Assembly (NCBI GenBank): GCA_018057825.1
Contig: JAGPCY010000005.1
Span: forward strand, 124,001-188,000
Direction of reading: 5' to 3'
Source of the DNA: Kofleriaceae bacterium
GTDB lineage: Bacteria > Myxococcota_A > Polyangia > Haliangiales > Haliangiaceae
DNA: 64,000 bases
Below are positions 43,618 through 51,045 of the stretch, piece by piece (position 1 is the first letter of the stretch; each line of letters starts with the position of its first letter). The position numbers and the translations under genes were made by a program. Under the pieces are notes generated by a model, which saw only the letters and a program-made list of their open reading frames with translations, was not told where the DNA came from and searched no databases.

Positions 43618-45093
43618 ATGACCGCGTCCTCGCTGTCCGCGCTGTATCGATCGTCTCTGGCCCTGGCCACCGACCTCTACCAGCTCACGATGGCCTACGG
43701 CTACTGGAAGGCCGGCGTCGCCGATCGCGAGGCGGTCTTCCACCTGAGCTTTCGGCGCGAGCCCTTCGCCGGCGGCTACGCGATCGCCGCCGGCACCGCC
43801 CTGGCGGTCGAGCTGGCGCGGGGGCTCGCGTTCGCCGCCGACGATCTCGACTACCTGGCGACCGTGACCGGCGCCGACGGCCGGCCGCTCTTTCCGCGCG
43901 CGTTCCTCGACTACCTGGGCGGGCTGCGCTTCACCGGCTCGATCGACGTCGTCCCCGAGGGCGCCGCGGTCTTCGCCCACGAGCCGCTGGTCCGGGTCCA
44001 GGCGCCGATCGCGGTCGCCCAGCTCCTCGAGACGCCGATGCTGGCGGTGGTGAACTTCTCGACGCTCATCGCCACCAAGGCCAGCCGGGTGGTGGCGGCG
44101 GCCGGCGCCGAGCCGGTGATCGAGCTCGGCCTGCGCCGGGCCCAAGGCCTCGACGGCGGCGTGACCGCGAGCCGGGCGGCGTGGATCGGCGGTTGCGCCG
44201 GCACCTCCAACGTCCTGGCCGGCAAGCTCTACGGCATCCCGGTGCGCGGCACCCACGCCCACTCGTGGGTCATGTTCTGGGGCGACGACGAGCGCGCGTT
44301 TCGCGCCTACGCCGACGCCGTCCCCGGCGCCGCCACGTTCTTGTGCGACACCTTCGACACCGAGGCCGGGGTCGCTGCGGCGATCGCGGTCGGCCGCGAG
44401 CTGCGCGCCGCCGGCCACGAGCTCCTCGGCGTCCGCCTCGACTCCGGCGATCTGGCCCACTTGTCGATCGTCGCCCGCCGCCTACTCGACGACGCCGGCT
44501 TCGCCGCCACCCGGATCGTGGCGTCGAACGATCTCGACGAGGAGCTGATCGCCAGCCTGCACGCCCAGGGCGCGCGCATCGACACCTGGGGCGTCGGGAC
44601 CAAGCTGGTCACCGCCTACGATCAGCCAGCGCTGGGCGGCGTCTACAAGCTCGGCGCGGTCCGGGAACCGGACGGTTCGTGGCGCTACCCGATCAAGGTG
44701 TCGGAGCAGCCGATCAAGATCTCGACCCCCGGCGTCCTCGGGGTCCGGCGGTCGTGGCGCGGCGGCGAGCTGGTCGGCGACGTGATCTACGATCGCGAGG
44801 CCGGCCTGGCCGGGCCCCGGATCGGCTGCGACCTGGCCGAGCCCGGCCGGCGCTTCGCCCTCGACGGCGATCGCGAGGAGGAGCTGCTGGTGCCGGCGCT
44901 CGTCGACGGCGCGGTGGTCGGCGAGCCGGGCGATCTGACCGCGGCCCGGGCCCGGTGCGCGCGCGACCTGGCGGCGCTGTCGCCGCGGACCCGACGATCG
45001 CGCAACCCGCAGCCGTACCCGGTCGGCCTCGAGCCGGCCCTGGCGGCGCGCAAGCAGGCCCTGGTCGCCGCGGCCCGGGGAGGTGCGGCGTGA
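43618..45093 (+). CDS. pncB: Nicotinate phosphoribosyltransferase
   Basis: The 491-residue enzyme makes nicotinate mononucleotide from nicotinate and PRPP. It has [53 protein letters not shown] (substrate loop), [11 protein letters not shown] (conserved His), [11 protein letters not shown]-type and [10 protein letters not shown] segments, and [21 protein letters not shown]. It begins the operon with AGGAGG about 10 nt before the ATG. Four genes follow closely: PRPP synthetase, nadE, nrtR. The layout is a self-contained nicotinate-to-NAD path lacking only the adenylyltransferase. Confidence 0.95.
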
Positions 45094-46007
45094 CCCCGCT
45101 GGTGTTCGCCGCCAGCCGCGATCGCGCGCTGGCCGAGCGGATCGCCGCCACCGCCGGCTGGCCGTGCGGCGAGGTCGAGCGCCAGACCTTCCCCGACGGC
45201 GAGCGCTACCAGCGGGTCGCGACCGCGGTCGCCGATCGCGACGTCGTGATCGTCGGCGGCACGATCGACGAGGACGCCACCCTCGAGATCTACGATCTGG
45301 CGTCGACGATCGTCGCCCACGGCGCCTACCGCTTGACCCTGGTCGTGCCGTACTACGGCTACTCGACGATGGAGCGGGCGGTCCGCCCCGGTGAGGTCGT
45401 CACGGCCAAGACCCGGGCCCGGATGTTGTCGTCGATCCCCGAGGCCAGCCGCGGCAACCGGGTCTTCCTCCTCGATCTCCACGTCGGCACGATCGCCCAC
45501 TACTTCGAGGGCGCGATCCGCACCGTCCACGTCTACGGCAAGTCGATCGTCACCGCGGCGGCGCGGCGCCTGGGCGGCCCCGACTTCGTGCTGGCCTGCA
45601 CCGACGCCGGGCGCGCCAAGTGGGTCGAGAGCCTGGCCAACGACCTCGGCGTGCCGGCGGCCTTCGTCTACAAGCGTCGGCTCGACGGTGAGACCACCGC
45701 GGTCACCGGGGTGTCGGCCGAGGTCCGGGGCAAGCGGGTCGTGATCTACGACGACATGATCCGGACCGGCGGCTCGCTGGTGAACGCCGCCCGCGCCTAC
45801 CGCGACGCCGGCGCGATCGCGATCGACGCGATCGCCACCCACGGGTTGTTCCCGGGGGATTCCCTCGAGCGCCTGCGCGCCACCGGGTTGTTCGGTCGGT
45901 TGGTCGTGACCGACAGCCATCCGCGGGCGCGGGCCCTGGCCTCGGACTTTCTCGAGGTCGAGACCGTCGCGCCGCTGTTCGTCGAGCACCTGCGTGCCAA
46001 TGTGTGA
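45090..46007 (+). CDS. prs: PRPP synthetase (ribose-phosphate diphosphokinase)
   Basis: The 305-residue protein has the RPPK fold: [14 protein letters not shown] (family FPDGE), [54 protein letters not shown] and the PRPP-binding [18 protein letters not shown]. It forms PRPP from ribose 5-phosphate and ATP. The GTG overlaps the pncB stop. Its place directly behind pncB suggests a dedicated PRPP supply for NAD salvage, as in some phage and bacterial NAD-repair operons; the housekeeping prs is probably elsewhere. Confidence 0.9.
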
Positions 46008-46025
46008 TCGAACGGAGCCCGCGCC

Positions 46026-48050
46026 ATGAAGCTCATCAAGGTCGCCGCCGCCTGCCTGAACCAGATCCCGTTCGCCTGGGATCACAACCTGGCCAACATC
46101 CGCGCCGCCCTGGCCGCGGCCCGCGCCGCCGACGCCACCGTGGTGTGTCTGCCCGAGCTGTGCCTGACCGGCTACGGCTGCGAGGACGCGTTCTTCGCGC
46201 CCGGGCTCCAGGACCAGGCCTTCCGCTGCCTCGAGGAGCTCCTGCCCGACACCCGCGGCCTGGTCGTCGCGGTGGGCCTGCCGCTCTACCACGAGAAGGC
46301 GCTCTACAACGTCGCCGCGCTGGTGGTCGACGGCGCGATCGCCGGCTTCGTCGGCAAGCGCTTCCTGGCCGGCGACGGCATCCACTACGAGCCGCGGTGG
46401 TTCAAGGAGTGGCCGGCCGGCGAGCGCGATCGCTTCGAGCGCGACGGCCAGGCCTGGCCGATCGGCGATCTGTTGTTCGACGTCGGCGACGTGCGGATCG
46501 GGTTCGAGATCTGCGAGGACGCCTGGGTCGCCAACCGCCCGGGCGCCGATCTGGCGCTGCGCGGCGTCGATCTGCTCTTGAATCCGTCGGCCAGCCACTT
46601 CGCCTTCGGCAAGTTCGCGGTCCGGCAGCGCTTCGTGATCGAGGGCAGCCGGGCCTTCGGCGTCGGCTATGTCTACGCCAACCTGCTCGGCAACGAGGCC
46701 GGGCGGGTGGTCTACGACGGCGGCGCGCTGGTGGCGTCGGGCGGCGAGCTCTTGGCCCGCGGCCGCCGCCTCGGCCTGGCCGGCCACGAGGTCGTGGTCG
46801 CCACCGTCGACGTCGAGTCCAACCGCCGCGAGCAGGCCCGGCGCGGCAGTCACCGGCCGCGCCACGACGCCGACCTGGGCGTGGTCGAGGTCGACTTCGC
46901 GTGGCCGGCGCGCCGCCCGGGCCCGCCGCCGACGATCGCGCCGACCTGGGAGGACGGCTCGGCGCTGCGCCACGAGGAGTTCGCGCGCGCGGTCGCGCTG
47001 GGGTTGTGGGACTACCTGCGCAAGAGTCGGGCCCGCGGCTACGTGGTCTCGATCTCGGGCGGCGCCGACTCGGCGGCGTGCGCGGTGCTGGTGCGCCTGG
47101 CGATCGAGCTGGCGATCGCCGAGCTCGGCGCGGACGGCGTGCGCGCCGCCTTGCCGCACCTCGACCTCGACGCCGCGACCGCCGGCGATCCCGCGGCCCT
47201 GACCCGGCGCCTCCTGGCCTGCGCCTACCAGCCGACCGCCAACTCCGGGGCCGTGACCCAGACCGCGGCGCGCGAGGTGGCGGCCGCGGTCGGCGCCGAG
47301 TTCCACCTGTTCGAGGTCGGCGACCTGGTCGCTGGCTACGTCCACACCGTCGAGGCCGCGGTCGGCCGGACCCTGACCTGGGAGCGCGACGACGTCGCCC
47401 TGCAGAACATCCAGGCCCGGGTCCGCGCGCCGTCGATCTGGCTGCTCGCCAACCTGCGCGGCGCGATCTTGCTCACCACCTCGAACCGCTCCGAGGCCGC
47501 GGTCGGCTACGCCACGATGGACGGCGACACCGCTGGCGGCCTGGCGCCGCTCGGCGGCATCGACAAGACCTACCTGCGGGTGTGGCTGCGGTGGATGGAG
47601 GCCACCGGCCCGGTCGGGCTGGCGCCGATCCCGGCCCTGTCGTTCATCAACGCCCAGCAGCCGACCGCCGAGCTGCGCCCGCCTGGTCAGGCCCAGACCG
47701 ACGAGAAAGATCTCATGCCCTACGACGTGCTCGAGGCCATCGAGGACGAGGCCATCCGCGACAAGCGCATGCCCCTCGAGGTGCTGGCCGAGGTCGCGCC
47801 GCAGTTCCCGGCCCACGCGCTGGCCGACCTGTGTCGGTGGATCGAGCGGTTCTTTCGCTTGTGGTGCGCCAACCAGTGGAAGCGCGAGCGCTTCGCCCCT
47901 GGCTTCCACCTCGACGACAAGAACCTCGACCCGCGGTCGTGGTGTCGCTTCCCGATCCTGTCGGGCGGCTTCGCGCGCGAGCTGGCGGCGCTCGCCGCCT
48001 TCCCGACCACCGCCGAGTACGCGGCCTGGGTCGCCGAGCGGGGGCGGTGA
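46026..48050 (+). CDS. nadE: Glutamine-dependent NAD+ synthetase
   Basis: The 674-residue protein fuses an N-terminal nitrilase-type glutaminase and a C-terminal NAD synthetase. The glutaminase triad is visible as Glu in [14 protein letters not shown], Lys in [12 protein letters not shown] and Cys in [11 protein letters not shown]. The synthetase has a P-loop [43 protein letters not shown] and a C-terminal extension. It amidates nicotinate adenine dinucleotide with glutamine-derived ammonia. GGAG lies before the ATG; its stop shares a base with nrtR (TGATG). Confidence 0.96.
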
Positions 48051-48766
48051 TGGCGACCTGGAGCCCACCGCCACCCGGCCGGCACACCTACCCGTATCCG
48101 CGGCCGGCGGTCGCGGTCGACTGCGTGGTCCTCGGCCTCGACACCGACGATCTCAAGGTCCTCTTGATCCGTCGCGGCGTCGATCCATGGAAAGGCGCGT
48201 GGGCCTTGCCCGGCGGCTTCGTCGGCGAGGACGAGTCCCTCGAGGACGCCGCCCGCCGCGAGCTGCGCGAGGAGACCGGCATCGGCGAGGTGTTCCTCGA
48301 GCAGCTCTACACCTTCGGCGCGCCCGAGCGCGATCCGCGGCACCGCGTGATCTCGGTGGCCTACTACGCGCTGGCCAAGCTGTCGGACTTCCACCTGGCC
48401 CCCGGCACCGACGCCGCCGGCGCCGGCTGGCACGCGCTGGCCGCGCTGCCGAGCCTGGCCTTCGACCACGCGGCGATCATCGACGCCGCGGTCGCCCGGC
48501 TGCGCGGCAAGGTCCGCTACGCGCCGATCGGCTTCGAGCTCTTGCCGCCGCGCTTCACGCTCACCCAGCTTCAGCGCCTCTACGAGATCATCCTCGAGCG
48601 GACCCTCGACAAGCGCAACTTCCGCAAGAAGATCCTGTCGCTCGGGCTGGTGATCGAGACCGACGAGGTCCAGACCGGCGTGCGCCATCGCGCCGCGCGC
48701 CTGTACCGCTTCGATCGCAAGAAGTACGACCGCCTGGTCAAGCACGGCTTCGAGTTCGCGATCTGA
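48050..48766 (+). CDS. nrtR: NrtR, Nudix-type repressor of NAD metabolism
   Basis: The 238-residue protein has an N-terminal Nudix domain with a complete Nudix box (GX5EX7REUXEEXGU, around residue 59-82), and a C-terminal winged helix. The linker [15 protein letters not shown] followed by [11 protein letters not shown] is diagnostic of NrtR. Family members repress NAD genes and are released by ADP-ribose. It is last in the NAD operon and should autoregulate. Unlike several NrtR proteins its Nudix box is intact, so it may also hydrolyse ADP-ribose. The candidate operator is at 43493-43507. Confidence 0.95.
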
Positions 48767-48791: not shown

Positions 48792-50024
48792 TCACGCGGT
48801 CAGGGCGGCGATCGTGCGCGGCGCGAGCTGGGTCACGACCGCGCGGGCCGGCGCGGCGATCAGCCGGTCGCGGAGCGCCGGCGGGAAGTGGACCTCGGTG
48901 CCATCGCCGCGCAGGCCGGCCTCGACCGCGGTGGCGGCCAGCCCGAGGAGGCGGTCGAGGTGGACGTAGGTCGCGAGGGCCTGGGCCACCGCCGGCGCCG
49001 CGTCGGGCCCGACGGTAATGGCGGCCTCGTCGGTGAGCGTCGCGGCGGGCGGCTCCTCGGCGCCGACCGCGCCAGCGACCGCGCGCGCCACCGCGCCCAG
49101 GACGCGATCGCTGCCGTCGGGAGCGAGGGGCTCGACCAGCCCGGCCAGGCCGGTCAACCAGGCGCCGCGCACTGGCCGCGCCACCGCCGCGGGGTCGGCC
49201 GGGCCGACGAGGAAGAAGTCCGGTGGATCGCCGGGCCCGTCGCGCAGCTCGACCAGGGCCGCGCCGAGCGGGTGGCCGGCGGGCACCGCTGCGGCCAGGT
49301 CGGCGTAGACGAAGCGCCGGGCCAGGGCCAGGAGCCACCACACGAGCTTCAGGTTGGTGTAGTGCGCGGCGAAGCGCTCGACCTCGTCGCCGGCCGCGGC
49401 CAGGGCGGCGACCGCCGGGCCCTCGGCGCGCGGGCGCCCGGTGAGGAGCGCCTCGAGGAACCGCCGGATCATCGCCTCGGAGCCGGCGCAGGCCTCGACC
49501 TCACCGACGAGGAGCCCGGTGGCCTCGGCCGACGCCGCGATCGCCGCCGCGGTCATCGCCGGCGCCGGACCACCGGCCAGCCGCTCGACCAGGATCCGCT
49601 GGGCCCACAGGCCGACGCCCTGGGTGGCCTTGGCCAGGGCCGCGGCGAACCCCGGGATCGGTTGGTCGCGGCGCAGGAGGAAGAACCACGGCAGCGACGC
49701 GGCGAACTGGCTGACCCGCCACACGTCGAGCAGCTCGGGGGCGGCCTCGGGGCGCGCCGCGGCGTAGCGCGTGCGGAGGACCGCGAGCGCGTCGACGACG
49801 TCGTCCCAGTGACTCGACATCTGCGCCAGCGCCGCGACGTTCATCGGCCGGCCGTGGCGCGAGCCGGGGTAGGGGCACGCGCGGTGGATCAGATCGCCGG
49901 GCCGCAGGTGCTCGGGCGGCGTGCGCACCTCGCACAGCGGGCGGTCGTCGGCGTCGCGGTGGTGGCGCTCCTCGAGCATGCGGAGGAGCAGCGGCGCCGA
50001 GGTCGGCGCGGGGCGGGAGCTCAC
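48792..50024 (-). CDS. Unknown 410-residue protein coupled to a GG-leader peptide
   Basis: I do not recognise this 410-residue protein. It has no signal peptide or clear membrane helix and looks helical: CEVRTPPEHLRPGDLIHRAC, MSSHWDDVVDALAVLRTRY, VSQFAASLPWFFLLRRDQP, GVGLWAQRILVERLAGG, VERFAAHYTNLKLVWWLLALARRFVYADL. Aromatic residues cluster in residues 110-130 and 230-250. Its ATG overlaps the stop of the upstream GG-leader peptide gene (ATGA, 50021-50024), so both are made together in a fixed order. It could modify, bind, protect against or help export the peptide; nothing in the sequence decides. It is convergent with nrtR, 25 bp away. Confidence 0.75.
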   Translation of the reverse strand: MSSRPAPTSAPLLLRMLEERHHRDADDRPLCEVRTPPEHLRPGDLIHRACPYPGSRHGRPMNVAALAQMSSHWDDVVDALAVLRTRYAAARPEAAPELLDVWRVSQFAASLPWFFLLRRDQPIPGFAAALAKATQGVGLWAQRILVERLAGGPAPAMTAAAIAASAEATGLLVGEVEACAGSEAMIRRFLEALLTGRPRAEGPAVAALAAAGDEVERFAAHYTNLKLVWWLLALARRFVYADLAAAVPAGHPLGAALVELRDGPGDPPDFFLVGPADPAAVARPVRGAWLTGLAGLVEPLAPDGSDRVLGAVARAVAGAVGAEEPPAATLTDEAAITVGPDAAPAVAQALATYVHLDRLLGLAATAVEAGLRGDGTEVHFPPALRDRLIAAPARAVVTQLAPRTIAALTA

Positions 50025-50308
50025 CAGCCCTTCTTACCCTTGCCGCAGATCACCTGGGGCGCGGCGGCCGGCTGGTTGAGCAGGGACATCGCCAAGAGCG
50101 GCATGAGCTGGCTCATCGCGTCGGAGCCCTGGTTCTGGTTGCGGCCCAGGTCGCGGATCGAGTTCTCGATGCTGTTCAGGGTGTCCATCATGCGCTGATC
50201 GAAGTCGGCGCGGCTCGAGCCCGACGAGGCGGCGCGGCGGCCCCCGGAGACGGTGGCGAGGTCGGCGGGGTCGATGGTGGCGAAGGTCGGGGTCGGCTTG
50301 GTGGACAT
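50021..50308 (-). CDS. Double-glycine-leader peptide, bacteriocin/RiPP-like precursor
   Basis: The 95-residue product begins with a leader of the double-glycine type: ATIDPADLATVSGG, with the cleavage site after Gly23. The leader pattern (acidic/hydrophobic helix, L..V.GG) matches Nif11/bacteriocin-like leaders processed by C39-peptidase exporters. The 72-residue remainder is hydrophilic, with Ser/Arg/Asn/Gln-rich helix (DFDQRMMDTLNSIENSIRDL), a hydrophobic patch (LMPLLAMSLLNQP) and a basic tail with one Cys (ICGKGKKGW, Cys88). AAGGA precedes the ATG. No C39 transporter or modifying enzyme is nearby in the window. The secreted role is inferred. Confidence 0.7.
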   Translation of the reverse strand: MSTKPTPTFATIDPADLATVSGGRRAASSGSSRADFDQRMMDTLNSIENSIRDLGRNQNQGSDAMSQLMPLLAMSLLNQPAAAPQVICGKGKKGW

Positions 50309-50701
50309 GGCGGGCTTCCTTGGCTCGGGTGGCGGGTGACCATCGCTAGAGCAGCCGGCGTGCCAGCGCCGGCGCCCCGTCGATCCGAGGATCTAGCCTC
50401 GTCGGCCGGGGGCTGGGACCCGCCGCTGCTGCCCGCGGTCGGCGCCGGACTCGGCGCCGGGGCCCGTCGCCCCGGGGGGCGCGGCGATCGACCGGGAGGG
50501 GAGGGCGGGGCGGCCGGCGGCCTGAGGCGCCGGGGAGGGGGCGGGCCGATCTGTCGGAGCGATCGAAGCGTTTTGTCGAAACTTCGTGATGGTCGAAGCG
50601 TGTGGCCGCCGCCATGGTGGTCGAGCGGCGCGGGGAGCGCCGCGACCAGCCCAGCGCCACGACGGCTGGCCAACGGCTGGCCAACCCACCGGGAGGACGC
50701 C
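50309..50701. other. 393-bp intergenic region between divergent genes
   Basis: No credible gene. It holds direct repeats TCGAAGCG at 50563-50570 and 50593-50600 (30 bp apart), an inverted pair CGAAG/CTTCG (50564-50568, 50582-50586) in an AT-richer patch, and an 11-bp tandem repeat at 50662. It may hold promoters for both neighbours. Confidence 0.5.
50662..50683 (+). repeat. 11-bp tandem duplication before a mini gene
   Basis: ACGGCTGGCCA occurs twice head to tail, each unit containing the palindrome TGGCCA, ending about 10 nt before the GGGAGGA of the zinc-ribbon gene. It could bind a regulator. Confidence 0.7.
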
Positions 50702-50875
50702 ATGACCACCGATCTCGACGATGCGCCTGATCGACCCGACCCTCACGGCCGGTGCGCCGCCTGCGCCGAGCCGATCGGCACCCGGCCACGGGTGATCGAG
50801 TTCTGCCGCGCGTGCACGGTGCCGCCCCACGACGAGACCGAGGCCCACTACTGGGCGATCGGAGGCAGCGACTAG
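50702..50875 (+). CDS. 57-residue zinc-ribbon mini-protein
   Basis: This 57-residue protein has two CxxC pairs (Cys18-Cys21 and Cys35-Cys38, 13 residues apart), the plan of a zinc ribbon, between an acidic N-terminus (DLDDAPDRPDP) and an acidic tail (HDETEAHYWAIGGSD). GGGAGGA lies 5-6 nt before the ATG, and codon usage matches its neighbours. The longer in-frame ORF upstream is low-complexity and rejected. The hexamer array begins right at its stop. Role unknown; such ribbons often bind nucleic acid or other proteins. Confidence 0.7.
   Translation: MTTDLDDAPDRPDPHGRCAACAEPIGTRPRVIEFCRACTVPPHDETEAHYWAIGGSD

Positions 50876-51045
<170 letters not shown>

What the first reader, a model, noticed from the sequence alone, without database searches (positions are those of the whole stretch)
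48792..50308. Two-gene cassette: GG-leader peptide coupled to an unrecognised 410-residue partner
The 95-residue precursor has a bacteriocin-type leader ending VSGG (cleavage after Gly23) and a 72-residue core with a single Cys and a GKGKKGW tail. Its stop overlaps the start of a 410-residue helical protein with no family I recognise. The fixed order and coupling suggest the partner processes, carries, protects from or is released with the peptide. No C39 transporter is in the window, so processing would be in trans. This is the best candidate for an undescribed system.
Basis: partly seen in the sequence, partly recalled or inferred. Interest (0 to 1): 0.7.

Follow-up and report, generated by a model that had tools for sequence, protein, structure and literature searches.

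The report
Exported peptide with dedicated unknown partner
A soil myxobacterium encodes a small peptide tagged for export and, overlapping it, a protein of an undescribed family that accompanies this one peptide subtype in nearly every related genome that has the peptide family; the peptide belongs to a multi-member set apparently switched on by sigma-54 and exported by a pump encoded elsewhere in the genome, so the pair looks like part of an undescribed peptide-secretion system.

Summary
Window 50021-50308(-) encodes a 95-aa double-glycine precursor (cleavage after Gly23; 72-aa core, one Cys, GKGKKGW tail). Its stop overlaps the GTG start of a 410-aa protein P (48792-50024(-)) with no Pfam, NCBIfam or PDB relative. 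The peptide is one of about six paralogues in its genome. Three sit beside a complete type-1 exporter (C39-ABC with its triad, two HlyD-type adaptors, TolC-like OEP, FHA/sigma-54 activator) on contig C14, so export in trans is likely. A sigma-54 promoter lies 58 nt upstream of the peptide; such promoters recur before 23/39 family peptides versus 29/476 control genes (p=9e-16). P's close clade (100/100 support) and the peptide family co-occur: 11/11 Kofleriaceae genomes with peptides carry P, against 1/19 without. Ten of those 11 genomes hold exactly one [KC]K[GC]W-tailed peptide, and P lies beside it in at least three gene arrangements. Distant P relatives exist without GG peptides; seven sit beside a different small exported protein (MSRxGP motif), two in NRPS clusters. 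Best reading: P is a dedicated cytoplasmic handling or modifying protein for the KKGW peptide, before C39 cleavage and export. Linkage is shown; the chemistry is inferred. Immunity and chaperone roles stay open.

The parts
50350..50366 (-). sigma-54-type promoter CTGGCACGCCGGCTGCT, 58 nt upstream of the peptide start
   Evidence: Only match to YTGGCACGN5TGCW in the 64-kb window even with one mismatch allowed; same motif before 23/39 family peptides vs 29/476 control upstreams
50021..50308 (-). 95-aa GG-leader precursor peptide (Q)
   Evidence: ORF and homologues; leader positions I-12/D-8/L-7/V-4/GG match the C39 consensus
50240..50308 (-). leader peptide, residues 1-23, ending VSGG (predicted cleavage after Gly23)
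   Evidence: alignment A2: L17, V20, G22, G23 invariant in 11 relatives
50021..50239 (-). 72-aa core: SIxDL amphipathic segment, Met-rich hydrophobic segment, single Cys, GKGKKGW tail
   Evidence: exactly one [KC]K[GC]W-tailed peptide found in 10 of the 11 peptide-bearing genomes
48792..50024 (-). 410-aa partner P, all-helical AF2 model; invariant D24 R28 E32 C50 R56 N62 C179
   Evidence: No Pfam/NCBIfam/PDB relative; homologues and invariants; model pLDDT 91, pTM 0.90
49401..50003 (-). core of P (residues 8-208), the part shared by the whole superfamily
   Evidence: distant members are often only about 235-310 aa

Best explanation
Q and P form a sigma-54-driven two-gene unit belonging to a multi-peptide secretion system of Kofleriaceae. 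Q is made as a GG-leader precursor. P, a soluble cytoplasmic protein whose superfamily-wide core carries an invariant D/R/E/C/R/N/C set, binds this [KC]K[GC]W-tailed precursor and probably modifies it (a maturase acting on the Cys / basic-Trp tail region is my guess). The C39-ABC/HlyD/TolC exporter encoded on another contig then cuts after Gly23 and exports the 72-aa core. Shown computationally: gene coupling, subtype-specific co-occurrence, exporter with catalytic triad, sigma-54 motif. Inferred: that P acts on Q before export, that the action is catalytic, and which residues it touches.
For: Co-occurrence: 11/11 peptide-bearing family genomes have close P vs 1/19 without, Fisher p=2e-7, not corrected for phylogeny. 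Subtype: exactly one [KC]K[GC]W peptide in 10 of the 11 genomes, none of it seen among the other family peptides examined. Adjacency kept through different arrangements: overlap or 4 nt (window, L021), P then Q 139-330 bp (L022, L027, L036), divergent 181 bp (L023), P 3-4 kb from the main array (L024, L028). The KKGW tail is conserved also where P is not downstream, so it is not a by-product of P's ribosome-binding site. The only close P in a genome without peptides (G013) lacks the segment holding Cys179. Exporter: C39 triad C39/H112/D128 by eye, two HlyD-type, OEP, FHA-sigma54 activator, next to three paralogous peptides, same layout in five more genomes. Sigma-54 motifs also precede the TolC-like gene, the LRR lipoprotein and the peptide array of that locus. 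Catalysis rather than scaffolding: charged/polar/Cys residues invariant across about 25%-identical proteins; two relatives in NRPS clusters. Dedicated-partner logic: a separate P clade (100/99) sits beside another small exported protein.
Against: No cofactor motif and no fold match (best Foldseek E 1.3; best VIA Z 6.9, ordinary for helical proteins). No experimental sign of modification; Cys is missing from one KKGW peptide (L110). P is not always co-transcribed with Q and lacks its own sigma-54 site elsewhere. Co-occurrence is within one family, so shared ancestry inflates it. G021 keeps the peptide with a truncated P.
Confidence: 0.42

Rival explanations
1. P is a dedicated chaperone or delivery factor: it keeps the Met-rich hydrophobic precursor soluble and hands it to the distant C39 exporter, without chemistry.
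For: Soluble all-helical model; Met/Gly-rich aggregation-prone cores; exporter encoded away from the peptide; recurring pairing of the P superfamily with small exported proteins.
Against: Other family peptides with the same hydrophobic segment have no P; relatives lie in NRPS clusters without such a peptide in view; strict D/R/E/C/R/N/C invariance suggests an active or ligand site.
Confidence: 0.22
2. P is a cytoplasmic immunity (self-protection) protein for a toxic KKGW peptide.
For: One P per KKGW peptide per genome, tightly coupled genes; toxin-immunity pairs often overlap.
Against: P is large, soluble and has deep relatives in NRPS clusters and beside Sec-exported proteins; an exported peptide would more usually be countered at the envelope; no antimicrobial activity is known.
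Confidence: 0.14
3. Q-family peptides are structural/social surface peptides (matrix fibres, like EbfG of Synechococcus) rather than antimicrobials; P trims or caps one subunit.
For: Many co-existing Met/Gly-rich paralogues with one exporter; sigma-54 and FHA/kinase control; precedent of GG-motif proteins secreted with a C39 protein and forming amyloid in biofilm (PMC9981879; PMC4997328).
Against: No sequence relation to EbfG was tested; cationic Trp/Cys tails are also typical of membrane-active peptides.
Confidence: 0.15
4. The pairing is historical accident: P is an unrelated housekeeping-type gene of Kofleriaceae.
For: Phylogenetic inertia; distant relatives without GG peptides.
Against: Several arrangements at different loci always with the same tail subtype; loss together in sister genomes of the same genus.
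Confidence: 0.07

Closest known systems
GG-leader peptides with C39-ABC (AMS/PCAT) type-1 secretion: colicin V and class II microcins
   Same: double-glycine leader with the C39 consensus; C39-ABC, HlyD and TolC parts present in the genome
   Different: six scattered paralogues for one exporter, sigma-54/FHA control, and a 410-aa partner in place of a small immunity protein; antimicrobial activity unknown
RaxX-RaxST-RaxAB of Xanthomonas (PMC4216712, PMC6637879)
   Same: GG-leader peptide with a dedicated modifying enzyme and a type-1 exporter: the working logic proposed here
   Different: RaxST is a sulfotransferase with a known fold; P has no recognised fold or family; RaxX and exporter are in one cluster
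EbfG1-4/PteB of Synechococcus elongatus (PMC4997328, PMC9981879)
   Same: several small GG-motif proteins exported with the help of a C39 protein, in a non-bacteriocin role
   Different: no P-like partner reported in the passages read; peptide sequences not compared here
Graspetide precursors (TIGR04497 GRASP_targ_2)
   Same: weak match over the leader only, residues 11-32
   Different: 16.7 bits against a cut-off of 32; no ATP-grasp gene next to the peptides

Membership tests
GG-leader peptide exported by a C39-ABC T1SS | leader with hydrophobic -12, acidic -8, Leu -7 and GG at -2/-1 | tested here: met
   I-12 D-8 L-7 V-4 GG; L17, V20, G22, G23 invariant in A2
GG-leader peptide exported by a C39-ABC T1SS | C39-ABC transporter with catalytic Cys/His/Asp plus HlyD and TolC components in the genome | tested here: met
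   contig C14 locus beside paralogous peptides; that it exports this very peptide is inferred
GG-leader peptide exported by a C39-ABC T1SS | cleavage after GG and secretion of the core | not testable with these tools
   needs in vitro C39 assay or supernatant mass spectrometry
Class II microcin / bacteriocin | antimicrobial activity | not testable with these tools
   no activity data
Class II microcin / bacteriocin | small membrane or periplasmic immunity gene adjacent | tested here: not met
   only P (410 aa, soluble model) follows the peptide; the next gene, 25 bp away on the other strand, is a Nudix-family gene read by eye
Graspetide | precursor scores above TIGR04497 cut-off and ATP-grasp ligase nearby | tested here: not met
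   16.7 vs 32 bits; no ATP-grasp among the ten genes of the C14 exporter locus scanned, none recognised beside the window peptide
Cytochrome P450 (for P) | profile similarity to P450s with aligned heme Cys | tested here: not met
   hhalign probability 0.2 against 25 P450s; no Pfam hit
Cytochrome P450 (for P) | P450 fold | tested here: inconclusive
   weak VIA rows Z 2.7-3.5 whose ends would put Cys179 within 1-2 residues of the heme Cys as I recall its number, but Z is in the noise
Any known enzyme family (for P) | sequence match in Pfam, NCBIfam or PDB | tested here: not met

The most novel reading that the evidence does not exclude
P founds a new class of peptide-tailoring enzyme with an undescribed helical fold that specifically modifies a C-terminal Cys...KKGW tail, within a sigma-54-controlled regulon of scattered GG-leader peptides served by one exporter; its relatives do analogous chemistry in NRPS pathways and on small Sec-exported proteins.
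Probability: 0.25. Interest if true: 0.85.

Novelty: new variant of a known kind. Interest (0 to 1): 0.62.

Why it matters
If right, Kofleriaceae carry an undescribed multi-peptide secretion system with its own sigma-54 control, and P is the entry point to a Myxococcota-wide protein family without annotation that recurs beside exported small proteins and in NRPS clusters. That would give a testable new peptide-handling or tailoring activity, and it shows how precursor, partner and exporter can sit far apart, which cluster-based mining misses.

Tried and rejected
Graspetide (TIGR04497) for Q: below cut-off, no ATP-grasp. Pfam GET2/Pex19/TrbL hits to Q relatives: low-complexity noise. P450 kinship of P: suggested by weak structural rows, not supported by profile comparison. 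Ferritin-like/diiron reading of P's C-terminal half (VIA Z about 5): candidate ligands such as the His of GAHY are not conserved even among close relatives. IDO/TDO/PrnB-type heme proteins: considered from memory; none appeared in the fold searches, which does not exclude them. First genome-contig scan with P alone found nothing; an alignment of close members found nine named Kofleriaceae/Myxococcales/Deltaproteobacteria MAG contigs. Whole-genome counts of the sigma-54 pattern are not enriched over the reversed control (33 vs 36), although 24 of the 30 sites examined lie 12-113 bp before a gene on the same strand; the same placement count was not made for the control.

Full report
OBSERVATION. 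Q (50021-50308, minus) starts with ATG, ends GKGKKGW, and has a leader TFATIDPADLATVSGG whose positions -12 (I), -8 (D), -7 (L), -4 (V) and GG fit the C39 recognition consensus quoted in PMC6363468. P (48792-50024, minus) starts with GTG inside Q's stop (GTGA). A codon-usage gene caller finds both. The nearest relative genome G003 has the same order 4 nt apart; Q 66% and P 58% identical. The window lies in an 8.9-Mb genome; the named relatives recovered are Kofleriaceae, Myxococcales or Deltaproteobacteria MAGs.

THE PEPTIDE FAMILY. A profile of 11 relatives finds Q-type peptides in 11 of 241 genomes of the class, all in one family, up to nine per genome. They share the leader, an IxxSIKDL segment, a Met-rich run, often a Gly-rich stretch, and in many members a basic C-terminus ending in Cys or Trp. 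The window's own genome has six hits: the window copy, three on contig C14, one each on C43 and C44.

THE EXPORTER. The C14 trio stands beside a C39-ABC transporter, an HlyD-type adaptor, a second HlyD-type protein, an OEP/TolC-like protein, an LRR lipoprotein and an FHA + sigma-54-activator + Fis-HTH protein; a Ser/Thr kinase gene lies a few genes away. The transporter keeps Cys39, His112 and Asp128, assigned by eye. The same layout recurs in G003, G015, G029, G024 and G022. Thus processing in trans is plausible and the machinery is identified, though which peptides it carries is inferred.

THE PROMOTER. CTGGCACGCCGGCTGCT lies 58 nt upstream of Q (50350-50366, minus), the only such site in the 64-kb window with up to one mismatch (about one match would be expected by chance, so its weight comes from the comparison that follows). 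Scoring 250 nt upstream of 39 family peptides against 476 other genes of the same loci, 23 vs 29 reach the threshold (p=9e-16); threshold and weights were set by hand, and several of the non-matching peptides are second or third genes of arrays. In the exporter locus the motif also precedes the TolC-like gene, the LRR lipoprotein and the first peptide. Whole-genome counts alone are not above the reversed control (33 vs 36).

THE PARTNER P. No relative in Pfam, NCBIfam or PDB sequences. AF2 gives a confident all-helical model (pLDDT 91, pTM 0.90) and core (residues 8-208; pLDDT 92), with no credible fold match. Across 20 homologues D24, R28, E32, C50, R56, N62 and C179 are invariant. Close P occurs in 12 family genomes; all 11 peptide-bearing genomes are among them, and of 19 without peptides only G013 has close P, lacking the segment with Cys179 (Fisher 2e-7, uncorrected for phylogeny). 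Ten of the 11 genomes contain exactly one [KC]K[GC]W-tailed peptide; the eleventh, G027, is 73% complete. P is next to that peptide as Q-P (two genomes), P-Q (three, one with a truncated P), divergent (one), or a few kb away at the end of the main array beside the queE-like gene (two); in the remaining genomes they lie on separate contigs. A tree puts the nine GG-linked P proteins in one clade (100/100).

WIDER SUPERFAMILY. A profile search finds P-like proteins in 14 of 284 phylum genomes. A second clade (100/99) sits beside a roughly 160-aa exported protein with a (M)MSRxGP motif in six genomes by profile, plus L033 by eye, once with overlapping genes; that protein has no Pfam family. Two members lie in NRPS clusters, with agmatinase/SbnA/SbnB-like or amidinotransferase-like neighbours named from their sequences by eye; two lie beside MOSC-like genes. 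So the superfamily is not restricted to GG peptides, but pairing with a small exported protein recurs.

MECHANISM. I favour: sigma-54 transcribes Q-P; P binds and probably modifies the KKGW precursor in the cytoplasm; the C39 exporter cleaves and secretes the core. The coupling is well supported; catalysis rests on invariant polar/Cys residues and on NRPS-cluster relatives, and is inference. Chaperone and immunity roles are the main rivals. A P450 origin was tested by profile comparison and not supported.

NOVELTY. The GG/C39 principle is known. The peptide family, its sigma-54 regulon, its scattered arrangement and P were not found in the family libraries searched nor in the literature searches made; most subscription papers are not in that library. 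The pair is therefore a new variant of a known kind, with a possible new enzyme class inside it.

Noticed in passing
L128:9840-11260, L129:8372-9795, L122:4070-5508, L124, L125, L126, L033: P-superfamily genes directly beside a ~160-aa exported protein with a conserved (M)MSRxGP motif and no Pfam family; a second dedicated pairing of the same superfamily
   Followed up: partly
L030/L132 (NRPS, agmatinase-, SbnA/SbnB-like) and L031 (NRPS, two amidinotransferase-like genes): P homologues inside nonribosomal peptide clusters with arginine/guanidino-type enzymes as neighbours (assigned by eye)
   Followed up: no
L121:7656-9854, L127:1843-4778: P homologues beside MOSC-like genes in two genomes
   Followed up: no
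L154 (G000:C26, near 116578): A different 78-aa GG-type peptide (MSTPTEIRPLEPIAADQLDAATGG...) 86 nt downstream of a sigma-54-type site in the same genome
   Followed up: no
window 50703-50875 (+): 57-aa ORF with paired CxxC motifs (zinc-ribbon-like), upstream of and opposite to the peptide
   Followed up: no
window 50877-51036: CGAGAC hexanucleotide array, about 27 copies, 84% matches
   Followed up: no
window 43618-48766 (+): Run of genes read by eye as NAD metabolism (nicotinate phosphoribosyltransferase, PRPP synthetase, NadE, Nudix regulator), convergent with P
   Followed up: no
L102:14286-15839 and orthologues: 517-aa protein of unknown family (GRVVVMPFEGP...) next to the peptide array of the exporter locus in the genomes read; no Pfam hit
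   Followed up: no
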